Positions 481 through 61,685 of a DNA stretch of 64,000 nucleotides are shown one piece after another. The notes under the pieces are model-generated. The model worked only from the letters and a program-made list of their open reading frames with translations, made no database searches and was not told the DNA's origin. The stretch comes from Pratylenchus scribneri (lineage: Eukaryota > Nematoda > Chromadorea > Rhabditida > Pratylenchidae). Where the stretch lies: assembly GCA_030063045.1 (NCBI GenBank), contig JAQSEB010000266.1, positions 1-64,000 on the forward strand, written 5' to 3'. The translations under genes and the position numbers were made by a program. Every line of letters starts with the position of its first letter. Within the stretch, counting starts at the first letter, position 1.

Positions 481-3198
481 TCAATTTACTATAGAATATG
501 GATTATATCGAAAAATTTTAAAATTTTTTTAATGCGAATTATATATTATTTTCCTAATATTATTAAAAATTTTCAAATAATCTACAATCTATATTTATTT
601 TATTTCTTATTAAATTTTTAAAATTATTAGTTTTCTTTTAAGTAATAATAAATTTTAAGCAATCTTCTTGAAAGAAAAACCAAAAAATATTCAAAAATAA
701 TTTTATGAATAATTTTATAAAATATTGTTACAAAGAATTTTTATTGCCTTTAAACATAAGAAAAATCTTAAAAATTTCCTGAAAATTTTTCCAAAATTTG
801 TAAAAATTTTATTAACTCATTCATTTCCTAAATCGATTCGGATGAATGCAAGTTGATTGAAATTTTAATTCTTTTTGTTTTTAAATAAAGGTATAAAACA
901 GATGTTGAATTGAGTGAAGAGGCATTGAAAAGGATTTGAGGAGGAAAAAATGAGAAAAAATGTTCAAGAACAAAAACCACAATTGACGCCGTTCTTCTTA
1001 TTCTTTCACAATGAATGTTGTAATTTCTTTTTTTTGTGTTTTTTAAAAAAGAATTTTGAAATTTTATCTAATTAGAGACAAAAAAAGACTATGTATTAAG
1101 TAAAGTCAGTCATTTCGTCAATTTCACAATGATACTTTGCAGTACATTTTTAATTTTTTTTTTATTAATTAAAATGATCATTTTATAAAAAATGCATCGT
1201 TAATTACGCATATAATTGGGGATTATTATTTACCGCATGAAGTAAAAATTAATCAAATTATTCTTATAAAGATGAATTCTACAATTTTTTAATATTGGAA
1301 TTTTATACATATATTGTAAGGCAAAATAGAGTCTCATGCATGTAGCATGTAGCTTGATGCACGTGTTTAAGATACTGATGTTGATTTTTAAAAAAAAAAT
1401 GAAAAATAATTTTGTTTAAATCTCCAAAATAGCAATTTTAATATTCATTTTTTATAAATTTTGGTTTATTTATATTGTAAATGCTAAAAATACTATTTCC
1501 TACAATTTCCATCAATTCATTTTAATTAATATTCGAATGAGTGTGTTTGAATTTGAATTGATGAGTCTGTGAATTATGTTGCATTTTAATATTAATATCT
1601 AATTAACTTTAATTAACAATTCCAAAATTCGATCTACAAATCTCGACAATAAATATGGCAGCAAAACTAATTTTTTAGAAATTTGTCTTTGACTTTTTAA
1701 TAAATATTTTTTTATATTTTAGTTCGCTTTCACGAACAGCCGATATTATCGAAAAAGTCTGATTTTTGCTTTTGCTTTCAAATTTAGCATCGCTATAACA
1801 TATGTATTAGTTCTTTTTCCTCAAAGAAAATTGAAATAGTTGGTTTTCCTTTTGGCAACATATTTGAAAAGCCCAATTAATAATAGCTTTTTTTCCAATG
1901 ACTGATCGTAGACTTGAACTTTGTTCCTTCACGTGAAAATATTAAGCATTTAGGAAATTTCAATTTTGGCCGTCATAAAGCTTCGGATTGGGACAATATA
2001 ATATTTTTTGTTAAAAGATTTCAGATTAAACTATATTATCTTTTATTTGATTTTATCTTAAATTTTAAATGATTAATTTTAATTAATAATAAATTAAGTC
2101 AATTTTCGGATAAAAATAAAAATTCAAAAATAATATTCAAAATAATTTTATGAATAAATTTAAAAAATTGTGTTCTCAGAAAAATCTTTTCAGGCCATCT
2201 TATTCAAATTTGTACACTAGCAACATCCAAATTATCCGCAAGTTTTATTCTCCCAATAAATCTAAACCGTAGCTCCAAAACCACTATAAAGTAAATTATG
2301 GACCCTCAAAATATATTGTCAAAATTTGTTAAAATTCTTTTATTATTTATGAGTAAAATAATGTTTTATTTTAATAAATCATAAATTTAAAAAAATTATA
2401 TTTCTTTTACAATAAAATTGATTAATGAAGAATCTAGCCTTAATATCGAATGTTGATGTTATTTTGAACCGACAAATAGGTAGTACCTTTTGTAATGTAA
2501 GATGAACGATCATATTCAAAAAGAATGAAAAATTGGTAAAATAATACAATACAAAGACTTAAAAATATATCAATTTTACATCTAAATTTTTTGATTCCAA
2601 TCCAATATATTCTCGAAATTTTTCATTCTATTTCGAACCAATCGAATAATTCATGCCAAAAATTGAAAAAAAAAACATCATATGTTTGTAGCAGTTGTTT
2701 CTATTCTTGACAAAATTAAAGAAAAATGAATCTAAGTTCTTCTTTTTCAATTTTTTTCTGAACCAAGGAGCCTTTTCATGTGAATTTCATTTTAAATCCA
2801 ATTGAAACTATATTTTGTTGAACACTTGTTGGTCCAGAGTCCAGAATAATTTTTTGAAGCAATTTTTTCAGATTCACCTGCTGCTGCTCTTGGATTTTAA
2901 AGAAACATTTTAGGCGGATTGCTTTGAAGATTGAAAGAAGAATTTATCAATCAAAAAATTTCTTATTTAGAACGAATGAATTGGCAGGAAAAAGAGAATT
3001 TCCTGGCTAATTTTTAAACAGCTGGTTTCAACTTCAGTTGTTTAATTTTCTCTTTCTTTCTTCATGAGTTCTTCAAAAAATGTCTTTAAAATAAGAATGA
3101 ATCTGATCGATGGTCAATCAAAAGTCAAATATATAAATATTGTGGAATAAGCACATTTTAGTCAGTGTTAAAAATCTGGATGAATTGAAATAAAAAAA
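481..3198. other. AT-rich intergenic DNA, no gene seen
   Basis: There is no open frame with coding character in either strand, only short poly-A/poly-T rich stretches. It holds the 3' flank of the arrestin gene and the upstream region of the saposin-like gene. An AT-rich TATA-like stretch lies near 3129-3140, about 60 bp before the next ATG. Confidence 0.6.
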
Positions 3199-5531
3199 AT
3201 GAAGGTATTTGCTATTCTTTTATTAGCAATTCTCTGGAGCCAGGTAATTTTGGTTCCATCTTCGGAAGATCAATCTTCAACATCCGGAGAAGAAGACAAC
3301 AAAATATTACCATCCAAAAAATTACCATCTATGCGATTATGGTATGCTCTTTGTTGTGGATATATGACAGAGAGCCTTGAGGTGGAAAAGGAGGAATTGG
3401 ATCGTGCAAATGGTTTAATAAAAATACAAAAGAATGTGATTGCAGAAGAACTCCGTTCGGATGATGGAGTAAGCATTATTATTATTATTATTATTATTAG
3501 AAAAGCTCAAAGTCGATACTAGTGTGAGAAAAATTTATGCAGTTTTTGAATGAGATTGGGAATTTTATGCTCATACTAATCGAAAATTAACTTTTTTTTT
3601 AATCAAAAACCAAATACCAGATTTATGCAAAAATCTTGGTTTAAAATCAAATTGAGCTACCCTATTTATCAATTTATTAATAAAAATTATATAATGGACA
3701 AAATTATTTTAAAGGAAATACCAGAAGCAGAGAAGGAAGATGAATCAACCACTTCCGCCCCAACAATAAAAACAACCACTTCGTCCCCAACAACAAAAAT
3801 TACCACTTCGACCCCAATAACAATAATGACTACCACTCCAGCAATAACAACCACTGCTAGCCCAACAATAAGTGGATCGAATCTTGCGGCAAAATGTGAA
3901 AGCTGCAAAATAGCTGCCACATTATATGACAAAGTACGTTTTAAATAAAATTTCTATTTTTTATACATTAGATATTAGATGACCGTTAGAATTTTATGGA
4001 GTTACAAAAAATAATAAATTTATTTGGATACAATCAATATTTCTGATAGGATTTCATTAGACATAACTTTTCTTAATTATAGTCAAAAATTAATAAAAAA
4101 AAAAAAGAATAAAAAATTTTACATTGGCAAAAAAATGAAAATAAAAATATTTCCACCTATTCATCATGTTCAAAAATATGTTTTTTTGAATTGGTGATTT
4201 TAATTTATAGCAGTAAATTTTTGAAACATTAAATTATTTTTTGTTACTAACTTGCCCAAAATTTCGGAAAATCTTTATATAGATAGATAATATTCTATTG
4301 AAAGAATTAAGAATTTAAAAAGTTAGAACTAGACCAAATGTGATATTGTGTGCCATGGCCATAATTCATTTTGTTTTTAAACTCCATAGTCTATATATAA
4401 AATAGTTAATAAATAGAGCTTTGGTTTAAGTTATCCAATTGTAAATTCATCATCCTGGATACTAAAAACCAAATAAATTTATGGTTTAGTTAAAATAACT
4501 GTTAAAAATCATAGCTATTGAAAACTACGATTGATATTTTTAAAATCATAATTTTCGCCATCCTAATTTCCTAAAATCGAAATCTTAATTTCTATTTTCA
4601 GATAAACAATATTGTTGAAGTGGATGGCAAAAGGCTTTTTCAAAGCATGTGCGACCATGATCAAGCCACAAAAGCTGATTGTAAAAAGATGTCGGACAAA
4701 TTGTTTGCTGTTGCACTTGCACCAGTGAAAATCATATTCCATCAAACTTTCCTCTGTGAAACCTTGTTTCCAGTGTGCAAAACGTTTGTTAAAATAAAAA
4801 ATTAATTCTAAATTAATAATTTTGGAATGAATAGTATTTTACTTGCCAAAATAAATATATAACTCAAATAATTATAATTATGTATAATGGATTATAGGTT
4901 TTTCTTCCATTCAAAAACCATATACTTTAAATATAATTTGTCAAACACATCTAATGGGTTTTTTTAAGGTTTAATCAAAATTAAATTGGTATTTAACTTC
5001 TAAAAACGATTTTTGCTTTTTTGGTTCAAATCTTTTGGTTTTATCTAAAGAAGCTAATTTTTAATAAAAAATGCTTCTTTGCCAGATCTATCGATTGTGT
5101 ATAAAGTTTATAAGCTTAGGAATCGGGATAGTAAAAACATGAAGTGTTAAAATTTTTCGCCACTTTCAATACTCTATTCGATGGTTTCAATGTTTTTGGT
5201 AATTTAAATATTCTCATTTTGGATTGGGTTAATGTATTTTTCCATTTAAATTTCAGTATTCCCGGTTCCTGTATGCAGTGTGAATCAGTTATCAGTTTTA
5301 CTGATAATGTAAGTTATAAGTAAGTATTTTTAACCATATACATAAAATGATTTCCAGCTTCTTTCCGCTGTGCAAAAACCAATCGAAACAGTAATGCCAG
5401 ACTTGTTCAAAGAACCAATGCAAAGCAAGGCAATTGCCTTTATGAATTCCTTGTTCGTCGAGATACGTACATATACGAAAGATGATGAAAAAAGCTCAAC
5501 TTGTACCAAATTCTTGAATTGCCAAAATTAA
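3199..5531 (+). CDS. secreted saposin-like protein with two SapB domains
   Basis: Five exons (3199-3468, 3715-3933, 4602-4783, 5257-5308, 5358-5531) join in phase to a 298-residue protein. The 3715 acceptor (TTTTAAAG) is the least certain junction. Residues 1-20 are a signal peptide (MKVFAILLLAILWSQVILV). A Thr/Ser/Pro-rich linker follows. The first SapB-type domain has its cysteines in the order CESCK, MCDHD, DCKKM, LCETLFPVC. A second domain starts with CMQCESV and ends STCTKFLNC but lacks the central cysteine pair. Saposin-like proteins bind or perturb lipid membranes; nematode members are often gut or gland antimicrobial proteins (family knowledge). The Thr-rich linker suggests heavy O-glycosylation. 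The function here is inferred from the fold only. Confidence 0.75.
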
Positions 5532-6238
5532 ATTTTGGCCTAATTTCAAAATAACTCAATTTTACTCGATTTTTAAATTCTGAAATGAAATATTAGTAAA
5601 AAAATAAAGAAATTTTCATTCATTATTTGGAATATAATCAAACACAATTTGATAAACTTATTTTTAATCATTATTTTATATATAATATTTGTCAAAATTT
5701 TAAGAGTAATATGATGAAAGATCACCTCAAAAATTAAATGGGGCATGGCGCATGGTACGATAAAAATAAAAATGAAGGAAAAAGTTTTTCAAGGTTAAAG
5801 TATATTAAAACTGACCCTTAAGCAAAGCATAAATGAATAATGGGAAAATGAGATGTTATCTACTTATGTTTAAAGAATCGGCAATAATATCACTACACAT
5901 TACTTATATGGTTACTAATCTTTATTATCTACAATCGATGAGTGAAAATATTCTCTTTTTTATATTATTTTTATTAATTTCAAGCCTATGTATTTTTCCT
6001 CGATTATTTTATAATTATTATAGTATATTTAAAAATGATAATAAATTCTTTCTAATTTTGAGCTCATTTCTTAATAACAAATTTAAATTTTAACCATTTT
6101 TATTATTTTTATAGCAATTTATCAAGTATAGATTTCAAAAAAAATAAGTTTTTCAAAAATTCTCAATCCTAAATAATTATTCTTCAATTATGTTTTTAAG
6201 AATTCAATTAAAATGATAAAATTTCATGCTCGAAAATA
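5532..6238. other. intergenic AT-rich spacer
   Basis: This is the spacer between the saposin-like and propeller genes. It contains an 86-codon hydrophobic open frame (5833-6093), judged to be chance because of its AT-driven composition and the absence of splice partners or a recognisable family. Confidence 0.5.
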
Positions 6239-9200
6239 ATGCTTTTTATTTTAATTTTGATTTTTCCATTGGCAATATCATTTAAATATTACATTGCTCC
6301 TCCATGGGAAAAATGCTTTACAAGAATAAAATTGCCTGAGGGTAAATATTTATCAAATGTTCGACAATTGAGCAATTTTATTGGCGCAAAAAATTTACAT
6401 TTTAGGTTGGATTTTATATAATAATTAATTTATAAAAATTATTTTCAAAATATTAAGCTTGCAAGATTCACAGAAATTATATTTTGAATCAAACATTGTT
6501 TTTTATGACACAAAATATGGATGTAATCAAGTATGAATTTAATTTTTTTTTAATTTTATATGGAAAAATTTCAGTTTTATTCACTCGAGCACGAACAAAT
6601 TCCTCCTGAACGAATATCGGTTGGCCATGGAGACGTGGAAAATGTTCTATTTATAAATAGTGAAGAAAAGTTGGCTTTGATTTCATCGAACAATAAAATT
6701 ATGGATAAATTTTTAAACTATTCGTCATTGGCTAAAGGTAAAATCTTTTGCAAATTAAATATCAAATTTGGTGATGGATTGTCATGGAACCCATAAATTT
6801 ATTTAAAAAAAAAAAGATTAAGAAATAATTTATATTTATTTTTAGGAATGGATACAGATTTGTTAATTTTGCCTACTAATGATGAATGTAAACAAGCAAA
6901 ATCGCCCTTGATTGAATATTTGTATGAAAATTGTCGTATTTCTCGTGAATGGAAAGATTCCAAAAAAGAATTAGAATCCATTTGTAATTTAAATATATAA
7001 TATTTAATCCAAAATGTAAGTCACATTTTTTGTTTAGGTAACTTTTGGTGGAACAAAGAATTAATTTACGACAGTTTTGAGCGATTTATTATGCTAAATC
7101 CAAATAAGGATATCTATTTGTATGATTTTGTGACTCAATTGCCTTTGAAAAAATTTATTTCAAATACTAATTTTGATGGATATCATTGTCTATCAAAGGA
7201 TGGGAAAACAATTTATTATATTTCCATCGACTCTAAAATTAGCCAAATTCCTCAAATTTGGAGTATGGATGTAGAAAATGGTGAAAATAAACAACAGGTA
7301 TATTTTTCGGTACTTTTGTACTTTGGGTCCCCTTTTTGGAAGTGCTTGGTCCCTATGGTGTTAGGATTTGGTTAGGGTTTGGGTTTAGGATACTCGTAAG
7401 ATGTTCCTTATCCCGTCCTAACCCTGACTAATCCCAACCCGAAATATGACAAACCAAAGGGGGGAGGGACCAAGCACTTTCCAAAAAAGGGGACCCAAAG
7501 TACAAAAGTACCTCTTTTTCTTTGAATTAAATTTAGTGATTATAAATATTATTATATATTCAAAATTGAAGATGAATAATTTTTTGACCATTGGTAATGA
7601 TTATATATTTTTTTATATCAAAATTTATCGGTTTATCTTAAAAAAATTAGCATCTTATAACTTTAAAATTGTCAATGAAGTTGGAAAAAAATTTTGTGAC
7701 ATTAAATTTATAAATTATTTTGACAACAAAATTCTTTTTTATTTAATAATAATTTTAATTAATTTGTAGTTGACTTCCTCTAATGATTGGAAAGTTGGAC
7801 CGTTGAAGCGTTCACCCAATGGGAATAATCTTGTATTCATGTGCATACCCGGTGGAAATGGAATCCACGAGGAATTGCAACATTTATTGAGGCAATAATC
7901 ATTTATAATTATTTTATAATAGATTTTAAAGCAATCAACCTGCAACATTCAATGCCAGTGCCACTCGAATTTGTACAATTGGTTTAGAAAATGGACCGAA
8001 TAATGTCATTTTTAAGGTCATGAATATATTACAATTATTTAATAAAAATATTTTTATTAGATTGTTGAATTGTCAAGTCCAAAAGAAATATTACCTGATA
8101 TATCCGTGCTCTATCAATTTGCAAATCCTATTTTCTTTTCTGATCAAAAAATCATTTTTAGTGCCCGAAAATTTTTAGGAATTGAATCTAAGATGGATTT
8201 AGTAAAGGTATGTCCAAAATTCTAACAAATTTTCCAATTTATATAAGAAAATAATGGTCAATTTTTATTAATTCAATAAAATTTATTTAACCATATTTTA
8301 TAATTTTTGGGCAGTTTTTTCTGATAATTTTATTTCTTGAAATTTGCATTTAATATAAATCACTTTTATAGATAGACTATTATTCAAATATGGCACTGTT
8401 TATTAGCAATTTGGATGGATCCGATACGGAACAGGTTATTATAAATTATCATAAAAAAATGGCATTTATTAATTTTATACTAATATAATAATGTTCGGGT
8501 TAATGATTATCATCTGCATAAGATTCAGACTTCTATAGTCAAATTTGGGCCTCAAAAAAGGCTTTCTTACTAAGAAATCTTAATTAATATGAAATATGCG
8601 AAAATTGCAAATATTTGACATTTTTAAAATGATGAAATTGTGGAAAAATTTAAATGTTCATTCAAAAATAAATATTTTTAATTTCAAATTAATTTTTCAA
8701 AGATTGTCGATTACCGCGCAATGAATGATTTTCCATTTTATGATTTTGTTAGTGGTCGTTTCACATGGATAAGCAGCAATGGAAAGCACTCTAAACAGCG
8801 CTATATTTATATGGCACAATTCACAAATATAACTGATATATTAAAAGGTTATTTATCAGGGGTGTTGCTCGTCTTGAAAATCACGAAACGAGTATTTTAG
8901 ACGAGTACGAATAGGCCCAAAAACGCGAGTATTACGAGTAATACGAGTACGAGTACGAGTAATTCAAATAAATTTAATTTTAAGTAAAAAAATTTTCCAA
9001 AATTAATAATCAATGGCTAAATTGATCTGTATTGCATAAATAAATGAATAATCAAAAAATATGAGCAAATTGTTTTTGCAAAAATAAAATTAATAATCAA
9101 AATAAATAGCCAAATTGTGGTGTAAAAATAAGAGTTTTTTAAACATTTTCCACTAATAATTTCTTTCTCAAATTGGTTAAAATTTGGCCAGCCGTAGAAA

Positions 9201-12200
9201 AGAGTCTTTCGCTTTCTGCGGACGTGGCCGGTGCTGAGAAATATTTGTTAGCCTATTTGCACAACAATGGCCATTTGATGGCATTTTCCTTGGACCAATA
9301 TGTGAATGGATCGCCTCCAATAGGAATCTTTTTCATTTTTGGATCCAAATTCCAAATAATCAAAAACCTATGAATGAAAAATATCCAATTTGGTTTTAAT
9401 AAACAAAAAAAACTTTATTTTCTGCCTTTTGACGAGCACTAATTTGGGCAGTTAATAAAAATAAAAGGCTATTTTGCTTTTATTTGTATCGGAAAATCAA
9501 TATTTTCATGAAAAATGGGAAAGTGAAGGGTCCCCTCTTCACTTTTCAATACTCGTCCAAATACTCGTTTCGAGGGCCAAAAAACGAGTACGAGTACACG
9601 AGTACGAGTAGGCCCAAAATCACGAGTAATACGAGTAATACGAGTACGAGTACGAGATGAATCAACACCCCTGTTATTTATATAATTTTTTGACATCTAT
9701 TTTTCGTTTTTTTTCTCAAAAAGTGATTTGTCTAAACTAAACTATAACTGGATTTTTAACCTAAACATTATATCAAAAGAGATAAATATCGTTTTTAGAA
9801 AATTATTGTGATAGCATTTAATTTATAGAAAAAATAAAAAATCAGGAAACGTGAATTTGAATCGTAATTTAAAATATTTTAAAAATGGAAATATTTTGTC
9901 ACATTTTTACTTCAGGAAATAATTAATTAAAAATAACTATCACAAAACATATTTTTTAGTTTTCAATTTAATAATAATTATAATTTAATTTGAAATAAGT
10001 ACTTTTAAATGTTGCCAAATAATGCTTAGCTTAAATTTAGAATCTTTTATGAGTTTGCATTTTCAGAGTCTGCAAAGCTGCAATTTGAAATACGAAATGT
10101 AAAGCAACTAACGAATTACGGAAATAACCAGTTTGCAACGCGTCCAATTTTCAGGTAAAAATAAAAATATAATTTTCATATTTTCCAATCGGAATATTCG
10201 TATACAAAATTCTATTTTCAGTGCCGATCATGAATCAATCCTCTTTGAATTAATTAAATTTAAATCATCCATGAATTCTTCTAATAATATCAATGAAAAA
10301 ATGATAAGCGAAATACGAAGAATTCCAATGCCAACAATAAATTTCCAACAAAATTGTGAAGATTTGATAGAGAAAAATGAACTCTACGAATTCTCTTTTT
10401 CAATCCAACAAAAGTCTTTATTAATTAGTTCGGCGTTTGAATTCGCTTTGAATGTCGTCTCCTACGATTCTGAAGGCAGTTTCATATTATATTCAATTGG
10501 ATCAAGTTTACTAAAAAAGAACAAGAAAATTGTGGAAAATGCTATAAAATGGAGAAAGCAGAAAAATTCTTCAATTTTGGAATTGAGAAATTATTTGAAA
10601 GAAAATTTGCAATCAAATGTTTATAAATCCAATGCCCTAGGGCAAATTTTGTATCCTTTGGTGGAAACAAATGGTAAGTTAAATAAAAAAAAATTCAAAA
10701 ATTCGCTTGTTACATTTAATATTGAAAATTAGCTAACTCCTCTGAATTGACTATATGTTACAGCTTCTATGATACCCAAGGACTTGAAAATAGGCTTATT
10801 CGACTCGGCATGATCGATGACCGATATTAAAAACTAGGCAAAAATAATATACCAAAATATATTTGATTTAAACAACGGTTCAGTTTTTAAGTACACGATC
10901 ATACTGTTTTGAAATTTAAAATTTATAGACTAAATCGACCATGTCGTGTCGAATGAACCCATTCTTATTTTTTTTATGAAACTTTGAAGAGTTTCAAAAT
11001 AGCTAGCTCATAACATTTAAATAATTCTGTAATTAGTCAATTTTCGATATTAGTTTTAAAAAATATAATATGAACAAAAAAATTCACTACAATAAGATTC
11101 TAATGATATATTTAAATAAACAAATTTATTAATAAAAATAGTAGTAATTTTATTCTAATTTTCGTTCTTATTTAAAGAAGAATTTTCCACTATTATTGAA
11201 GAAGTTGCTCATATTAAAAATGATAGTATTTGCCAACTTTTATTCATTACAATAAACTCTAAAAAGAACTATGAATTGTGGAGCATTTTGAGTAAAAATT
11301 GTTGGAATGTCTATGATGAAACATTTTGCTATACAACACAAAATAGTCGATGTTCAAAATGGGATAATTGGAAAACGATGAAGGATGGTGGAAATTTGCC
11401 AATGAATAAAATACAAAAATTGTTAAACTTGGAAAATTTTAATTATATTGGCGATTTAGCATTTTCTCTGGATGGCCAAAAAATTGTTTTCGCTGGAAGC
11501 ATTCAACAAAATGAACAAGAGATAAGGTAAATTTTATTTAAATTTTATATTGACTAAAGAAATTTAAACAATTTACTTGATCCTTTTATTTTATAAATTT
11601 GATAGAGCTTTTTTCCTCAGCAAAAAATCTGGGACTTTAATTTTTTATATTTTCCTTTAAAATTTTATTAAATTTTTATCGCACTTTTAATACACCAGAA
11701 TTTTAATTTATATTGATAAATGTGTATTTATTCATAAAATAAAATTATTGCTTCTATTTCTTTTTTAAAAATTTAAATATTAATAGAATAAAAATATTTA
11801 TAGCCCCGAAGACAATGTGATGAACTTTGAATTACCAAAGGAATTGTTTATAATGAATTGGAATGGCACAGAATTGAAACAATTAACAAATTTTAAAGCA
11901 CAAAGTTTTGGGCCAAAATTTTTGCCCATTCCCTTCAACAATTTCATCATATTCAATTCAAATTATGCTAATAATTGCTCTACCAACTATTCACTATATA
12001 TATATGATTTGAATTCAAAGAATTTAGAGAAAATTCAGGTGAGAATAATATTTTTAATAAAATAGTACTAGAGCAATAGTAAATTACAAAATTTTTGAGG
12101 AGATATAAATTGTCCTTAACGAAACCCTAAAGGCTTATTTTTGGTGTTAGATTTTCGTTAGATTTAGGCTTATTAGACAGAATATAATCATAAAGAAATC

Positions 12201-29495: not shown

Positions 29496-30329
29496 TTTCC
29501 GGTTAAAACTTTCCGGAAAACAGACGGACATAATTCTTTCCGGTTAAAACTTTCTGGAAAACAGGCGGAATTAATTCTTTCCGGTTAAAAACTTTCCGGA
29601 AAACAGGCGGAATTAATTCTTTCCGGTTAAAACTTTCCGGAAAACAGGCGGAATTAATTCTCTCCGGTTAAAACTTTCCGGAAAACAGGCGGAATCTTTC
29701 CGGTTAAAACTTTCCGGAAAACAGGCGGAATTAATTCTTTCCGGTTAAGACTTTCTGGAAAACAGGCGGAATTAATTCTTTCCGGTTAAAAACTTTCCGG
29801 AAAACAGGCGGAATTAATTCTTTCTGGTTAAAACTTTCCGGAAAACAGGCGGAATAAATTCTTTCCGGTTAAAACTTTCTGGAAAACAGGCGGAATTAAT
29901 TCTTTCCGGTTAAAAACTTTCGGAAAACAGGCGGAATTAATTCTTTCCGGTTAAAACTTTCCGGAAAACAGGCGGAATTAATTCTCTCCGGTTAAAACTT
30001 TCCGGAAAACAGGTGGAATCTTTCCGGTTAAAACTTTGCGGAAAACAGGCGGAATTAATTCTTTCCGGTTAAGACTTTCTGGAAAACAGGCGGAATTAAT
30101 TCTTTCCGGTTAAAAACTTTCCGGAAAACAGGCGGAATTAATTCTTTCCGGTTAAAACTTTCCGGAAAACAGGCGGAATAAATTCTTTCCGGTTAAAACT
30201 TTCTGGAAAACAGGCGGAATTAATTCTTTCCGGTTAAAAACTTTCGGAAAACAGGCGGAATTAATTCTTTCCGGTTAAAACTTTCCGGAAAACAGGCGGA
30301 ATTAATTCTTTCCGGTTAAAACTTTCCGG
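29496..30329. repeat. satellite, ~41-bp unit, about 20 copies
   Basis: The unit contains TTTCCGGTTAAAACTTTCCG then GAAAACAGGCGGAATTAATTC. Variants recur in a fixed order: a short unit joined as GGCGGAATCTTTCC appears near 29690 and again near 30018, and the TCTCTCC variant near 29660 and 29984, giving a higher-order period of about 324 bp. Confidence 0.9.
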
Positions 30330-54400: not shown

Positions 54401-57400
54401 GGCAAAGGCACACACTGGGCAAGGGCAAAATATGTTGGGGGAACAAAACTGCAATGGTTTTGTGTGTTGGTTTGGCATGGCAGGCCCAGGGCAAATGACT
54501 GAATGTGAAGGAGGGTTTTGGCGAAAGTGGGGAGATGGGCCGACTGACTGAGGGTGGAATGAATGGGAATGGGTGGGGGAAGGGAGCCCCGGGAAAGATA
54601 AACGCCGGCACAAATTGATTGCTCCGGCTCTTCACATTCCACCCTCCTCCACATTTTCCCTTTCCTTTCGTTCTTGGCCCCGGCAATGGAGGGGAAAAGC
54701 GAAAACCACCCAATGGCTTCCTTCACATCGGCGGCCACGATTGAGGCCTAGTCATCGATGGCGGCAGCGGCGGCCCAATCGGCCACTGTGTCGTTGTCTT
54801 CGCCGAGAGGGTTGGCCTCCTCTCCTCAATGTTGGCCCAAAAGGCCCTTCTTTTTACCCAGCACTCCTCCTCCACATTTTCGTCCCCATTCACAAAATCG
54901 GTGGCCCCGGACCGGGCCGTGCCTGCCCACCCCATCACCATTGAAACGTCAACACACACACACACAGGATACAGTCTTTTGGCTCAGAATTGGTGGGATG
55001 AGAAAATGGGCCAAAATGAAAGAAAAGGAGGGAGGAACAAGAGAGGAGCTCAACTGCTGGATGGACTTTCGCGGGCATTGTTGGACTGACTTTGTGAGGT
55101 GACCAGCAGCATACAGATCAAAGAAGAATTGGTCACGAAAATGTCGAGGATTGGGGAAATGGGGGAAATGAGGGAAAAATGCGCGCAAAAATTTAGGCCA
55201 TTTTATAAAAGGGAGGCCAAAATGGCTTAGAATAGAAGAGGCCCAAATGGCTTTGATGTGGATAGTTGAAAAGGAAGAAGTCAAAATGGCTTTGAATGGG
55301 ATTGATGGATTTTGCGCGAAAATGGCAACAATATTTTTAGGCACTCATATCAAAGGGCACAAAAATATTTCCCCACTCCATAAAAGTTGTAAATGGATCC
55401 CCCTTTCTATTTGTGCCCATTTATTTTCTTTGAATGAATGGCCAGCAATCCGCCGGTTTTACTTTTTGCCGATCCCCCAAGTCTCCGTCGATTTGTGCTT
55501 GGGAAAATGCCTTGGGGGGAAATTTGCTGCATTGCTCTTTGCCCTTTTCATCGCCTTTCTTCTTTTCTCGGCGCCCCTTCCCCTTCAGGGCCGTTTTTGT
55601 TCGCCGCCGCCGTATAATAAATGGATTGATGGCGCGCTCCAGGCAAATTTGAACTTTGGCAGCAGCGAAGTTTGTTTCGCCTTCTATTTTTACTTTTAAA
55701 ATGCTTTTTTTTCAAAAAGGATGGAAATGGGAAGGGAAGGGGCCATTTTTATGCTCCCAATAACGCTCATTTGTCCCATTGTTGATTTCTATATCAAATT
55801 AATGAGCAAACTTTTGGCTATCAATTGATATTAATTTTTGGTTCACAGTAGTGATGAAAATGTATCTAAAAAACTTAAAATATTCTTTACAATGGATTAA
55901 CCAAATTTTCAATGGTTTTTTGGGCTTAACTCCACAATTTTGAGCCAATTTAAATAAAATTGATATTTTATTAGGTAGGCAATAGCCTATTCCCTATTCT
56001 TTAAACGGTTATCAAAAATAATTAAATTGGTTCTGTCTTTGATCAATTATTTTAAATGGCACCAAGTTGGACCGACAAATTGGTCTGCTCCGAATTGTAA
56101 GGAAGCAATCCCGGCGCTGCCAATATTTAGATTTGGGATATAGCCCATCAAACTGCCAAAATGATTACTGCTGCCAAAAGTGGTGGCAGAGGTATGGTGG
56201 CAATGAAAGTGGTTGGGGGTTGGGAATTGGCGGAATGAATTAGAGGGAAGGGCCAAATTGATTGGGAGAGGGTGGCAGGCAAAATGGCCGACCGAGCACC
56301 GCTGCCGTGGTTGATGTGAGCAAAAGGGGGCGAATGTGTGATGGAATGGAATGATGGGCCGGAAAATAGGAAAAGGAAAGGTGGGAAGGGAGGCTGGTTG
56401 ATATTGGCGGCCCAGGGCCGGCTCCTCTTTCTACCCTGCCCTTCATCATCGGCGGCGGCGCTGCCACCATTCCTTTGTCTTCTTCTTCCCAATCGGCGGC
56501 GGTGTCCCGTGGCAGCCGCCGACTCCGTTGTGCTCATCAACCAACAACATTCATTCTCGGCCTCACCAATGATGGCCTGACGATGCGCCTCAATCAAAAT
56601 ATGGGCAGTCGAGAGTCGGCGATGATTGTGCCCTTTCCCCTTTTTAATGGGTCTTGAGACCGACGAAAAGGATAGAAAAGGAAACGGCCAAATCAAACAA
56701 TTGGTTTTTAAGGCAAATGCCAATATAATGCGGGAATTAGTGACTAAAAATTAGGCAAAAATTGAAAAGAAATTGGAAAAATTGAGATGCCCGCAATTAA
56801 AAATAAACACAAAAGAGGTGGAATTAATTTACAAAACAGGCGGAATTATTCTAAGCGAAAACACAAACAGGCGGAATTATTCTAAGCGAAAACACAAAGA
56901 GGCGGAATTATTCTAAGCGAAAATACAAAAAGGCGGAATTATTCTAAGCGAAAACACAAATAGGAGGAATTATTCTAAGCGAAAACACAAAAAGGCGGAA
57001 TTATTCTAAGCGAAAACACAAAGAGGCGGAATTATTCTAAGCGAAAACACAAAAAGGCGGAATTATTCTAAGCGAAAACACAAAGAGGCGGAATTATTCT
57101 AAGCGAAAACACAAAGAGGCGGAATTATTCTAAGCGAAAACACAAAACAGGCGGAATTATTCTAAGCGAAAACACAAATAGGAGGAATTATTCTAAGCGA
57201 AAACACAAAACAGGCGGAATTATTCTAAGCGAAAACACAAACAGGCGGAATTATTCTAAGCGAAAACACAAAGAGGCGGAATTATTCTAAGCGAAAACAC
57301 AAAACAGGCGGAATTATTCTAAGCGAAAACACAAAACAGGCGGAATTATTCTAAAAACACAAAACAGGCGGAATTATTCAAAGCGAAAACACAAACAGGC

Positions 57401-58330
57401 GGAATAAGCGAAAACACAAAATAGGCGGAATTATTCTAAGCGAAAACGCAAAACAGGCGGAATTATTCTAAGCGAAAACACAAACAAGCAGAATTATTCT
57501 AAGTTGAAAATATAAACAGACGGAAATATAGAAAAAGTTGCAAAGTAAAAATACAAAAACTTTTTGTCCAATTTTAAAATATTTTATATTCTACTTTTTC
57601 ATCGTTATCATTTACTTGAAAATAAGAAAGTTTTGAAATGAATATTGGCCAAAATTTATAAAAAAATTCCATATTACTCATCCGTCCACATTCATTGCCA
57701 TTTCACATTTTTGTATCCCATGATTCTCCTTTCACATTCTCAACAAAGGCCTCTTTCTGCCACCTTGCCATAATGGAATGCGGCCGGCGCGCCTCACAAA
57801 TCGACGGCGGTGGCGATGGGACAATTCTCAATTTTGGTGCTTCGGCCCCATCATCCCCCTTCACAAATTCCCGTTTATTTTGCCCAGTCTTTGGCTGGGT
57901 CTCGACTCTCGACACATAGCACAGCACAGGGTGAGGTCGGCGCCCCGGCCCAACCATCCATCGCCATTTTCTCCTTATTTTTTCAAAGCGCCAACGTCTC
58001 CCCCACCCATCCCCATTCACCTATATACAATTTCGCCATCATCAATATTTTGGCTCGTCGATATTTTAGGGTGGAGGCACCGCCGGCCCGATTTGTGTGT
58101 ATATTTATTCTATTTGTGTGCCTTACCCTCAATTTTTGGTTTTGGGTCGGCCAAATCATCCACCGTTGCCACCAATTTTTAGTGTGGACTGTGGATGGAA
58201 GAAAGGAAAAGGCGAATTTATTATTGGAAATAAATTTGGGAGAATAATGGCGCCATCAATAAATGGAGAATGGGAGACTAATTGTTTGCGGGAATATTTC
58301 CCGCACACTCAAAATTTTTAGGACGTCACC
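51481..58330. other. extended GC-rich intergenic region without a convincing gene
   Basis: The base composition changes abruptly near 51.5 kb and returns to AT-rich near 58.3 kb. Many overlapping open frames exist on both strands, the longest at 53334-52627 (-), but they are a by-product of low AT content: they lack domains, overlap in up to four frames, and are Pro/Ser/His/Arg-rich. The region lies between the divergent FLYWCH and solute-binding genes and could be a large regulatory region or hold untranslated first exons. A satellite occupies 56820-57535. Confidence 0.5.
56820..57535. repeat. 31-bp satellite, about 23 copies (left of solute-binding gene)
   Basis: The unit is AGGCGGAATTATTCTAAGCG then AAAACACAAAC/G. 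The same satellite recurs at 61200-61685. It shares ACAGGCGGAATTA and TTCT with the 41-bp satellite at 29496-30329. Confidence 0.9.
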
Positions 58331-58793: not shown

Positions 58794-60874
58794 ATGTTGC
58801 CCATAAATAAATTTTTTCACCTCTCATTTTTCTTCATTTTGGTTTGGGCAGTGATAAAATTGGAGTCAAAAAATTCGCAAAAACTTAAACAGCGCCCAAA
58901 AATTGCTGTTGAAAATCGAACAATTGAACAAATTTATGAGGCAGCATTAGCCGAAGGTGGCCAACTTGTTGTGTACGCCAATGGGAACCGTGCATTCCAG
59001 GCATGTTCTATTTGTTGAGCACCTATTTAGGAGAGCCATTTATATTTCATATGATTCAGATACTTTATAAATGTTGCCATCTTCAATGAATTTTAAATAT
59101 GCAATGAAAAACTATAAATATTTCAGGCTCGAACATTATCACAGATGGTGCCTGCCTTCCAACGCCGATTTCCCGGCGTAAATTTAACTATTGTTGTGGA
59201 CAAAACGAACACACACGCTTCTCGGGCAAATGTCCAATTAGAGTTGGGCTCTGTGGTTTTTGACTTAGTTCAGTTGGAATCTGTGCATGATTTTTATAGA
59301 TGGAAAGCTCAAAATGTTTGTAAAATTAAATAAACCAATTTTCTAAAAATGTAATTATTAAATCTTGCTTAAATAACGCCAAATATTTTTCACATTTTTA
59401 AATGTTGGCATATTCTCGTAAAAATGGCAAAATATGGCTTGAATAAAGAGAATATTTTTGTTTAGTGTCCGAAATTAACTTATTAGATAAAACAGCGATT
59501 GTTTTAAATTTTCGACATACTTAAATTATATAAATTCCAATGTTCCATCATTTTATATTTAGAATTTGTACTACTATAAGCCAATTGCATGGGACTCCAT
59601 TCATTCGGCATTCCGTGACTGCGATGGAGCGTTCACCTCAATTTCTGGTACAGTATTCTCCCTAGTGGTGAATACAGCATTACTACCCAATCAGTCGGAT
59701 TGGCCTCGGAGTTTTGGCGAATTGGTTGACGATCCCAAATTCTATGGAAAAATTTTGGCCGCATATCCCATTGATGTTGATGCGCCTGATACAATTCTTT
59801 ATGGGTATTTTAATTACGGATTAACTATAAATATAAAAATTTTGGCTTGACCAAATAAATTTAATTTGTTTTTTACATTTCCCATATAATACAAAGAAAA
59901 ATAAATAAATAAATCTTTTGCTCATTGATAGGTACAAACAAATTTTGGACAAATATGGCTACAATTGGATGACCAAATTGATGAAACAAAATGTGACATT
60001 TATGCGGGACACCAGTCTAATTTCAGCAGCCATGAGTTCTGGCCAATTCTCTATTGGACTATTTGGGTGGCAATCAGGCAATGTGTCCAATCAGCGGTTC
60101 GTTCTTCCAGAGGAGGATAAATTTGTTTCATATACAGTGCTTACCGCCATATTCAATGAGGCAAATTTTTTGAATATTAATTTCACAATTAAATTTTGGG
60201 TCATTCTTTCTATCATTCATAAATTTGGATGTTTAAATTATATACAATTTATAGAGTATTCTCTTAATTATTGGCCAATTTTTTCCCATTTACTTACAAA
60301 ATTAAAAAGAAAAGATAATCATAAAAATATCATTTAAACAATGGGCAATTAAAATTTAAGTATCGAGATTTTCGAAATTAATTTCTTAATTGCTTATTAT
60401 TTATTTTTATTAATTAATTTCCAATAACTAGGGCTTAGGAAAGAATTTTTCTTCAATATCATTTAAATTTAATAAAAACCATTCAAATTTTGCAAATCAT
60501 TTTTTCAAGTTTATTAGATAAATTTGAAAAATTATTAATAATTTTCAATTAGGTATATTTTTAATTTATCATGCATTTTTCGAGTTAAAAAATAAAAAAA
60601 TCATCACAATTTCTTATATATCTCATCGAACCTCTAAATTTCTATTCAAACAAAAAAATTCCAGAGTCCGCACAAGGAGGCGGCAAAATTGTACATAAAT
60701 TGGCAGCTTGAAAAGGAGATGCAACAAACATTGGCTTGGACCGTTCGAGAAGATATGGCACCAACCAACGGTTTTCGACATATTTGGGAATATGGCGCCC
60801 AAAGCAGTTATGCAGATTATGTGCGCTTCTATTTGGATCGAGCCGGTGCAGAACGAGTTCGAAATGCGGTCTAG
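58794..60874 (+). CDS. secreted ABC-type solute-binding protein (periplasmic-binding-protein fold)
   Basis: Exons 58794-59000, 59127-59315, 59563-59804, 59932-60160 and 60665-60874 join in phase to 358 residues, full length for a family-1/6 extracellular solute-binding protein. Residues 1-20 are a signal peptide (LSFFFILVWAVIK core). The mature start EQIYEAALAEGGQLVVYANG is the typical first strand of the bacterial and fungal Fe(III)/polyamine-type binding proteins. It is followed by FQRRFPGVNLTIVVDKT, DLVQLESVHDFYRW, YYYKPIAWDS, SLVVNTALLP, SFGELVDDPKFYGKI and, near the end, SPHKEAAKLYINWQLEKEMQ. Animals normally lack this family, while some fungi and oomycetes have it, so horizontal acquisition followed by intron gain is the leading inference. 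Two of the four introns (59001, 60161) need GC donors. Confidence 0.8.
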
Positions 60875-61199
60875 TGGGAGAGCCTAAGGGTCCGCGGCCA
60901 ATGGATCCGGACAATTTGTTGGGCATAATGCCACACTAAAAATTGTTCCAAATTTAAAGGATTATTATTGAATTGATTTTTTTTATCTATTATCAGCAGT
61001 TCGTTTTTTGCCGAATAAAGAGTCGATTCACCATTTTCTGTAATTTATTCAATGAAAATCGTATATCATTATGCTCTAGGAAATTCTGTAAATTTCTTTT
61101 TTATTCGTGTCTAGAAATAGGCGAAATTATTGTTAAATTTTTATATTATAATTTGATAATCGACAGGTTTTTCAGTTATGATTATCCAAAATCAATTTC
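60875..61199. other. 3' flank of the solute-binding gene
   Basis: AT-rich, no gene. The short frame at 60973-61218 runs into the satellite and is not supported. Confidence 0.45.
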
Positions 61200-61685
61200 T
61201 AACAGCAGGTGGAAATAATCTAAGCAAAAACATAAAATAGGCGGAATTATTGAAAACACAAAGAGGCGGAATTATTCTTAGCGAAAACACAAACAGGCGG
61301 AATTATTTTAAGCGAAAATTCAAACAGGCGAAATTATTCTAAGTTGAATACACAAACAGGCGGAATTATTCTAAGTGAAAACACAAAAAGGCGGAATTAT
61401 TCTAAGCGAAAACACAAACATGCGGAATTATTCTAAGCGAAAACACAAACAGGCGGAATTATTCTAAGCGAAAACACAAAGAGGCGGAATTATTCTAAGT
61501 TGAAAACACAAACAGGCGGAATTATTCTAAGCGAAAACACAAACAGGCGGAATTATTCTAAGTTGAAAACACGAACAGGCGGAATTATTCTAAGTTGAAA
61601 ACACAAACAGGCGGAATTATTCTAAGCGAAAACACAAACAGGCGGAATTATTCTAAGCGAAAACACAAAGAGGCGGAATTATTTA
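61200..61685. repeat. 31-bp satellite, about 15 copies (right of solute-binding gene)
   Basis: Same unit as 56820-57535 (GGCGGAATTATTCTAAGCGA with AAACACAAACA), with more TTGAAAACAC variants. It starts about 330 bp after the stop codon. Confidence 0.9.

What the first reader, a model, noticed from the sequence alone, without database searches (positions are those of the whole stretch)
58794..60874. Bacterial/fungal-type solute-binding protein gene in a nematode-like contig
A full-length, signal-peptide-bearing, intron-containing gene encodes an ABC-type substrate-binding protein. The family is a bacterial uptake component also found without its transporter in some fungi and oomycetes; it is not a standard animal family. 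Five exons with nematode-style introns argue against contamination. A secreted nutrient- or metal-binding protein would be a new kind of acquired gene product for a plant parasite. The ligand cannot be told from sequence alone.
Basis: partly seen in the sequence, partly recalled or inferred. Interest (0 to 1): 0.88.

Follow-up and report, generated by a model that had tools for sequence, protein, structure and literature searches.

The report
Remodelled bacterial-type metal scavenger in nematode
A root-feeding nematode carries its own spliced copies of a bacterial-type secreted protein whose relatives soak up iron and copper; the family was already known in such nematodes, but this copy belongs to a branch that has changed the metal site while natural selection kept the rest of the protein.

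Summary
The gene is real: five exons at 58794-60874 (+), 358 codons. Three paralogues on other contigs share its exon structure; dN/dS among the four is 0.12-0.21. Assembly size and contig number match Pratylenchus scribneri. By sequence it is a relative of the secreted metal-binding protein IbpS of Dickeya (E 1.3e-71), not of AfuA/FbpA or PotD. The family is already published in cyst nematodes and, gland-expressed, in Radopholus. So "a new kind of acquired gene product" does not hold.

New here is the window gene's clade. Six of eight residues lining the IbpS iron site are changed, three of them at positions invariant or nearly so in 206 homologues, while four dimer contacts are kept. The genome's other clade (contigs C23, C46) shows the reverse. 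Enrichment of losses at the iron site over general divergence is weak (P 0.02-0.08). In the window copy the family's C-terminal tail lies in another frame, with 8 synonymous to 2 non-synonymous differences from an intact copy: a recent break or an assembly error.

Most likely: a secreted flytrap protein from an acquired metal scavenger, drifted to another ligand or partner. Ligand, expression and secretion are untested.

The parts
58794..59000 (+). Exon 1: start codon, hydrophobic N-terminus, begin of domain
   Evidence: conserved in 3 paralogues
59001..59126 (+). Intron 1, GC-AG
   Evidence: GC donor in 4 of 4 copies
59127..59315 (+). Exon 2: positions of IbpS S86, K87, Q110, T111 (here T, N, E, S)
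59316..59562 (+). Intron 2, GT-AG
59563..59804 (+). Exon 3: broken triple-aspartate loop with three-residue insertion
59805..59931 (+). Intron 3, GT-AG
59932..60160 (+). Exon 4
60161..60664 (+). Intron 4, GC-AG
60665..60874 (+). Exon 5 with stop codon; position of IbpS M334 (here Y) and dimer contacts R337, E341, R344 (kept)
60874..60939 (+). Family C-terminal tail, readable only in a different frame from exon 5
56834..57529 (.). 31-bp satellite array upstream
   Evidence: genome-wide count
61252..61683 (.). 31-bp satellite array downstream
   Evidence: genome-wide count

Best explanation
This is a nematode gene derived from a horizontally acquired bacterial-type Ibp (secreted iron-binding protein) gene that has duplicated within the genome. 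Shown: gene structure, homology to IbpS, paralogues, purifying selection on the body of the protein, change of six of the eight residues around the IbpS iron site, retention of four dimer contacts. Inferred: the protein is exported and folds as a two-lobed Venus-flytrap dimer. In relatives such proteins lower free iron and copper outside the cell and so limit hydrogen-peroxide damage. In this branch the low-affinity metal site is probably lost or altered, so these copies most likely bind another small ligand or a partner molecule in host tissue, while the C23/C46 copies keep more of the metal site. The window copy may itself be newly damaged at its 3' end.
For: IbpS is the only PDB sequence match (2 sequences, E 1.3e-71 and 2.8e-71). 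Rhizobium and Enterobacter plasmid homologues are about 40% identical over 90% of the query. The nematode copies carry introns and lie on several contigs. dN/dS is 0.12-0.21 in 6 of 6 pairs of the four copies. IbpS S86 is S in 206 of 206 homologues, K87 is K in 205 of 206 and D192 is D in 203 of 203 with a letter; here T, N and a non-acidic residue, with a three-residue insertion; Q110 is E, T111 is S, M334 is Y; R223, R337, E341 and R344 are kept. Iron site and dimer are described in PMC6813330 (Results parts 1-3 of 4 read). Gland expression of an R. similis homologue is in PMC8601627 (passages).
Against: Loss at the iron site is only weakly enriched over general divergence: the window protein lost 3 of the 5 site columns that are conserved at 95% or more, against 12 of 50 such columns overall (P 0.08; 0.02-0.08 over the four copies). 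Where the broken DDD sits depends on gap placement (differ). The published iron site is poorly coordinated (PMC6813330), so its loss need not abolish metal binding. No expression data were at hand. Neither a P. penetrans nor an R. similis gland promoter motif was found upstream of 5 of 5 genes looked at. Only 1 of 4 copies of this clade has the tail contiguous in frame. The grouping of the two nematode clades and the donor are not resolved.
Confidence: 0.55

Rival explanations
1. The protein is still a secreted metal scavenger like IbpS: the changed residues are tolerated because the site is loose and binding uses acidic residues that remain, and it protects the nematode from peroxide in plant tissue.
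For: Homology over the whole domain; D191 and D193 equivalents kept in one alignment, and extra E and D nearby; iron in IbpS is poorly coordinated (PMC6813330).
Against: Three positions invariant or nearly so in 206 homologues are changed and shared by copies under purifying selection.
Confidence: 0.25
2. The window copy is a decaying gene with no present function.
For: C-terminal tail out of frame; the tail is also interrupted in C169 and closed by stops in C212; a degraded fragment exists on C186.
Against: 358 open codons over five exons with intact splice sites; dN/dS 0.13 to C27 and to C169; tail differences 8 synonymous to 2 non-synonymous, so any break is recent.
Confidence: 0.13
3. Bacterial or fungal contamination in the assembly, or an old animal gene passed down vertically.
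For: Closest solved relatives are bacterial.
Against: Introns, paralogues on other contigs, satellite on both sides, MYND-finger frame nearby; Vieira et al. found no homologues in other metazoa than some plant-parasitic nematodes, Folsomia and fungus gnats (PMC8601627, passage).
Confidence: 0.02

Closest known systems
IbpS of Dickeya dadantii (PDB 6fjl, 6hhb) and the Ibp family (Liu et al. 2019, PMC6813330)
   Same: Sequence relation over residues 34-355; dimer-contact residues R223, R337, E341 and R344; tail sequence present downstream in the DNA
   Different: Six of eight iron-site residues changed, three-residue insertion in the triple-aspartate loop, tail out of frame, introns, animal genome
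Radopholus similis SBP_bac_6 gene g10597 and its family of 8 (Vieira et al. 2021, PMC8601627)
   Same: Plant-parasitic nematode, same Pfam family, introns, small gene family; homologues reported in root lesion nematodes
   Different: The R. similis gene is 50% identical to a Rhizobium protein and gland-expressed; the window protein is about 40% identical to Rhizobium homologues and its expression is unknown. The sequence of g10597 was not available to compare
Copies on contigs C23 and C46 of the same genome
   Same: Same family; one intron of the C23 gene lies 2 nt from intron 2 of the window gene (my reading)
   Different: Keep S86, Q110, T111, D192, D193 and M334 but change R223, R337, R344 and E353; 27-44% identical to the window protein in the matched pieces
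Folsomia candida homologue LOC110841702 (P0028)
   Same: Animal copy of the same family, 36% identical over 90%
   Different: Keeps all eight iron-site residues

Membership tests
Ibp family (IbpS-like secreted metal-binding proteins) | Sequence relation over the whole substrate-binding domain | tested here: met
   E 1.3e-71, residues 34-355 of the query
Ibp family (IbpS-like secreted metal-binding proteins) | Iron-site residues S86, K87, Q110, T111, D191-193, M334 | tested here: not met
   Six of 8 changed, against an alignment with 206 homologues. So I call it a derived relative, not a metal-binding member
Ibp family (IbpS-like secreted metal-binding proteins) | Dimer contacts R223, R337, E341, R344 | tested here: met
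   4 of 4 kept
Ibp family (IbpS-like secreted metal-binding proteins) | C-terminal tail linking the two lobes (IbpS 352-372) | tested here: not met
   Present in the DNA but in another frame; 10 or more residues follow the aligned end in 199 of 206 homologues
Ibp family (IbpS-like secreted metal-binding proteins) | Secretion signal and no ABC transporter partner | tested here: inconclusive
   Hydrophobic N-terminus by eye, no predictor. No ABC component among 10 window reading frames scanned, a part of the 81 frames of 90 or more codons
Ibp family (IbpS-like secreted metal-binding proteins) | Binds Fe(III) and Cu(II) | not testable with these tools
   Needs purified protein
Ferric-binding proteins AfuA/FbpA/FutA or polyamine-binding PotD | Sequence match to solved members | tested here: not met
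   Only two IbpS sequences matched at E up to 1; folds were not compared
Nematode oesophageal-gland effector | Gland promoter motif known from P. penetrans or R. similis | tested here: not met
   CAANTGKC and the Rs-SUG pattern absent from 0.9-1.0 kb upstream of 5 of 5 genes. Weak test: motifs of other species, and only a part of their gland genes carry them
Nematode oesophageal-gland effector | Gland expression | not testable with these tools
   Needs in situ hybridisation or gland RNA

The most novel reading that the evidence does not exclude
In Pratylenchus an acquired bacterial metal scavenger has split into complementary clades: one (C23, C46) keeps most of the metal site and loses the dimer contacts; the other (window, C27, C169, C212) keeps the dimer contacts and gives up the metal site under purifying selection, becoming a secreted binding protein for a new, non-metal ligand or plant partner.
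Probability: 0.33. Interest if true: 0.6.

Novelty: new variant of a known kind. Interest (0 to 1): 0.42.

Why it matters
The family is linked to plant attack by bacteria and fungi (PMC6813330) and to nematode glands (PMC8601627). Two clades with opposite losses in one nematode genome give natural material to separate metal binding from dimerisation, and to ask what an acquired solute-binding protein does once its original ligand site is gone. The result also corrects the idea that such genes are new to plant-parasitic nematodes.

Tried and rejected
Contamination was considered and rejected (introns, paralogues on other contigs, satellite on both sides). A donor for intron 2 at 59320 would make a stop at the junction, by eye; the donor at 59316 is the one shared with the paralogues. 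A scan of viral contigs found no relative. The Rfam scan at gathering thresholds and the tRNA scan of the window gave 0 hits. Two gland promoter motifs were sought and not found. The bacterial donor could not be named: the window clade groups with the C23/C46 clade and the environmental protein P0002 at SH-aLRT 81 in a tree of 83 of the 212 sequences held; C23/C46 and the window clade group at 67 after removal of 8 rows (which warns of meeting long branches); without C23, C46 and P0002 the window clade sits on a branch with support 0. In some searches the row labelled M334 (or its M-W-S-V-R context) is IbpS residue 303, not 334; one search corrects it. Passages of the H. avenae effector paper PMC5775296 held nothing on this family; passages of the P. 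penetrans gland paper PMC7585316 held no mention of 'solute-binding' or 'SBP_bac'.

The library search for 'Pratylenchus' with 'solute-binding protein' gave 1 paper, PMC8601627; a search on IbpS with nematode terms gave no further nematode study of the family in its listing of 14. Most subscription journals are not in that library.

Full report
Observation. The finding describes an intron-containing gene for a bacterial-type solute-binding protein at 58794-60874 on the + strand. It is there. Five exons give an open frame of 358 codons, with Pfam SBP_bac_6 and SBP_bac_1 above their cut-offs. Introns 1 and 4 begin with GC, introns 2 and 3 with GT.

Where it lies. The window is the first 64,000 bases of contig C266 (94,826 nt) of an assembly of 227,248,964 bases in 276 contigs. 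These numbers equal those published for Pratylenchus scribneri, 276 contigs and 227.24 Mb (PMC10138993, passages), so I take the organism to be that root-lesion nematode; no sequence was compared with a named record. A 31-bp satellite lies on both sides of the gene (56834-57529 and 61252-61683); a 22-base piece of it has 4,405 exact matches on one strand of the genome and 4,445 on the other. A reading frame 2 kb downstream holds a MYND finger, the only one of 10 scanned frames with a Pfam match above its cut-off. Contamination is therefore unlikely.

What it is. In a sequence comparison with PDB chains two sequences match at E up to 1, both of IbpS, at 1.3e-71 and 2.8e-71. IbpS of Dickeya dadantii is a type II-secreted protein that binds iron and copper, protects bacteria from hydrogen peroxide and forms dimers; its iron sits at a surface site near the dimer interface and not in the usual pocket (PMC6813330, abstract and Results parts 1 to 3 of 4 read). 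Bacterial relatives on plasmids include Rhizobium and Enterobacter at about 40% identity (18 records with a match, 11 of them covering at least 80% of the query). A profile search gave 168 proteins, 120 listed, including a Folsomia, an Aphanomyces and a Plenodomus protein. A scan of bacterial and archaeal genomes gave 174 relatives, 80 kept.

Already known. The Ibp family was reported in Heterodera avenae and Folsomia candida in 2019 (PMC6813330). [quoted passage not shown] An 'extracellular solute-binding protein family 1' transcript is up-regulated in the hatching table of a study of potato cyst nematodes (PMC5478601, passage). So the claim of a new kind of acquired product does not stand.

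The paralogues. DNA searches of the own genome found three further genes of the window type, on C27, C169 and C212, and a degraded fragment on C186; two further short hits, on C31 and C136, fall in intron 2 of the query. All four genes have the same five exons, and intron 1 is GC-AG in 4 of 4. Pairwise protein identity is 74-94% and dN/dS is 0.12, 0.17, 0.13, 0.17, 0.13 and 0.21 over 349-356 codons. Two further genes, on C23 and C46, form another clade, with dN/dS 0.21 between them over 377 codons, the first exon left out. One intron of the C23 gene lies 2 nt from intron 2 of the window gene, by my reading; other introns differ. The number of copies is a lower bound: searches scored 40 candidates each, and the protein search of this genome did not complete.

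The metal site. I aligned the six nematode proteins with 206 homologues (85 bacterial loci and 121 database proteins). IbpS S86 is S in 206 of 206; K87 is K in 205 of 206, the exception being P0002, which groups with the C23/C46 clade; D192 is D in 203 of the 203 with a letter. The window protein has T and N at the first two; the DDD triplet is broken and carries a three-residue insertion; Q110 is E, T111 is S and M334 is Y, although Q110, T111 and M334 also vary in the homologues (177, 181 and 159 of 206 keep them). The C27 and C169 copies share these changes; C212 has lost the S86-K87 stretch and D191. Dimer residues R223, R337, E341 and R344 are kept in 4 of 4. The C23 and C46 copies show the reverse: they keep S86, Q110, T111, D192, D193 and M334, change K87 to I and D191 to M, and change R223 to Q, R337 to Y, R344 to S and E353 to H. 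Against this reading, the window protein loses 12 of 50 strongly conserved columns overall and 3 of 5 of those at the iron site, P 0.08; the values for C27, C169 and C212 are 0.05, 0.06 and 0.02, and 0.26 for C23 and C46. The enrichment is weak, and the numbers of residues are small.

The tail. Ten or more residues follow the aligned end in 199 of 206 homologues. In IbpS this tail joins the lobes and takes part in the dimer (PMC6813330). In the window gene the tail is readable right after the stop but in another frame; in C169 it lies about 0.5 kb further on; in C212 stops close the frame within it; in C27 it is in frame. The window tail differs from that of C27 by 8 synonymous and 2 non-synonymous changes over 21 codons, so it was under coding constraint until recently or the break is an assembly error.

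Origin. The window clade is solid (100) and groups with the C23/C46 clade and P0002 at 81 in a tree of 83 rows. Support for the nematode rows as one group is 67 without eight long or short rows, and the donor is not resolved. A single acquisition with later duplication is the simpler reading, but two acquisitions are not excluded.

How it probably works. Export and the two-lobed fold are inferred from the hydrophobic N-terminus and homology. Relatives lower free metal outside cells. For this clade I think a change of ligand is more likely than retained metal scavenging, because the same replacements at near-invariant positions are shared by copies that remain under purifying selection. That last step is inference and needs protein chemistry.

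Noticed in passing
window 29496-30329, 56834-57529, 61252-61683: Two different satellites (41-bp and 31-bp units) share the core ACAGGCGGAATTA; a 22-base piece of the 31-bp one has 8,850 exact matches in the genome.
   Followed up: partly
L108 (C169), 2333-7676 and 8747-9264: The C169 paralogue has a 5.3 kb third intron and about 0.5 kb between exon 5 and the tail; intron or inserted element not resolved.
   Followed up: no
G000 C46:2109517-2121972: The C46 paralogue spans about 12 kb because a long stretch separates its first exons from the rest.
   Followed up: no
P0002 (261 aa, environmental protein): It groups with the C23/C46 nematode clade (SH-aLRT 95) and shares its change at K87; it may come from a nematode or other eukaryote in a soil sample.
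   Followed up: partly
window 7001-7372: This reading frame has a WD40-like beta-propeller match just below the cut-off (PD40, 19.3 against 20.9 bits).
   Followed up: no
L002 (Rhizobium etli plasmid), 1-2535: One Rhizobium homologue lies directly after two ABC permease genes, unlike IbpS, which has no ABC genes nearby (PMC6813330).
   Followed up: no
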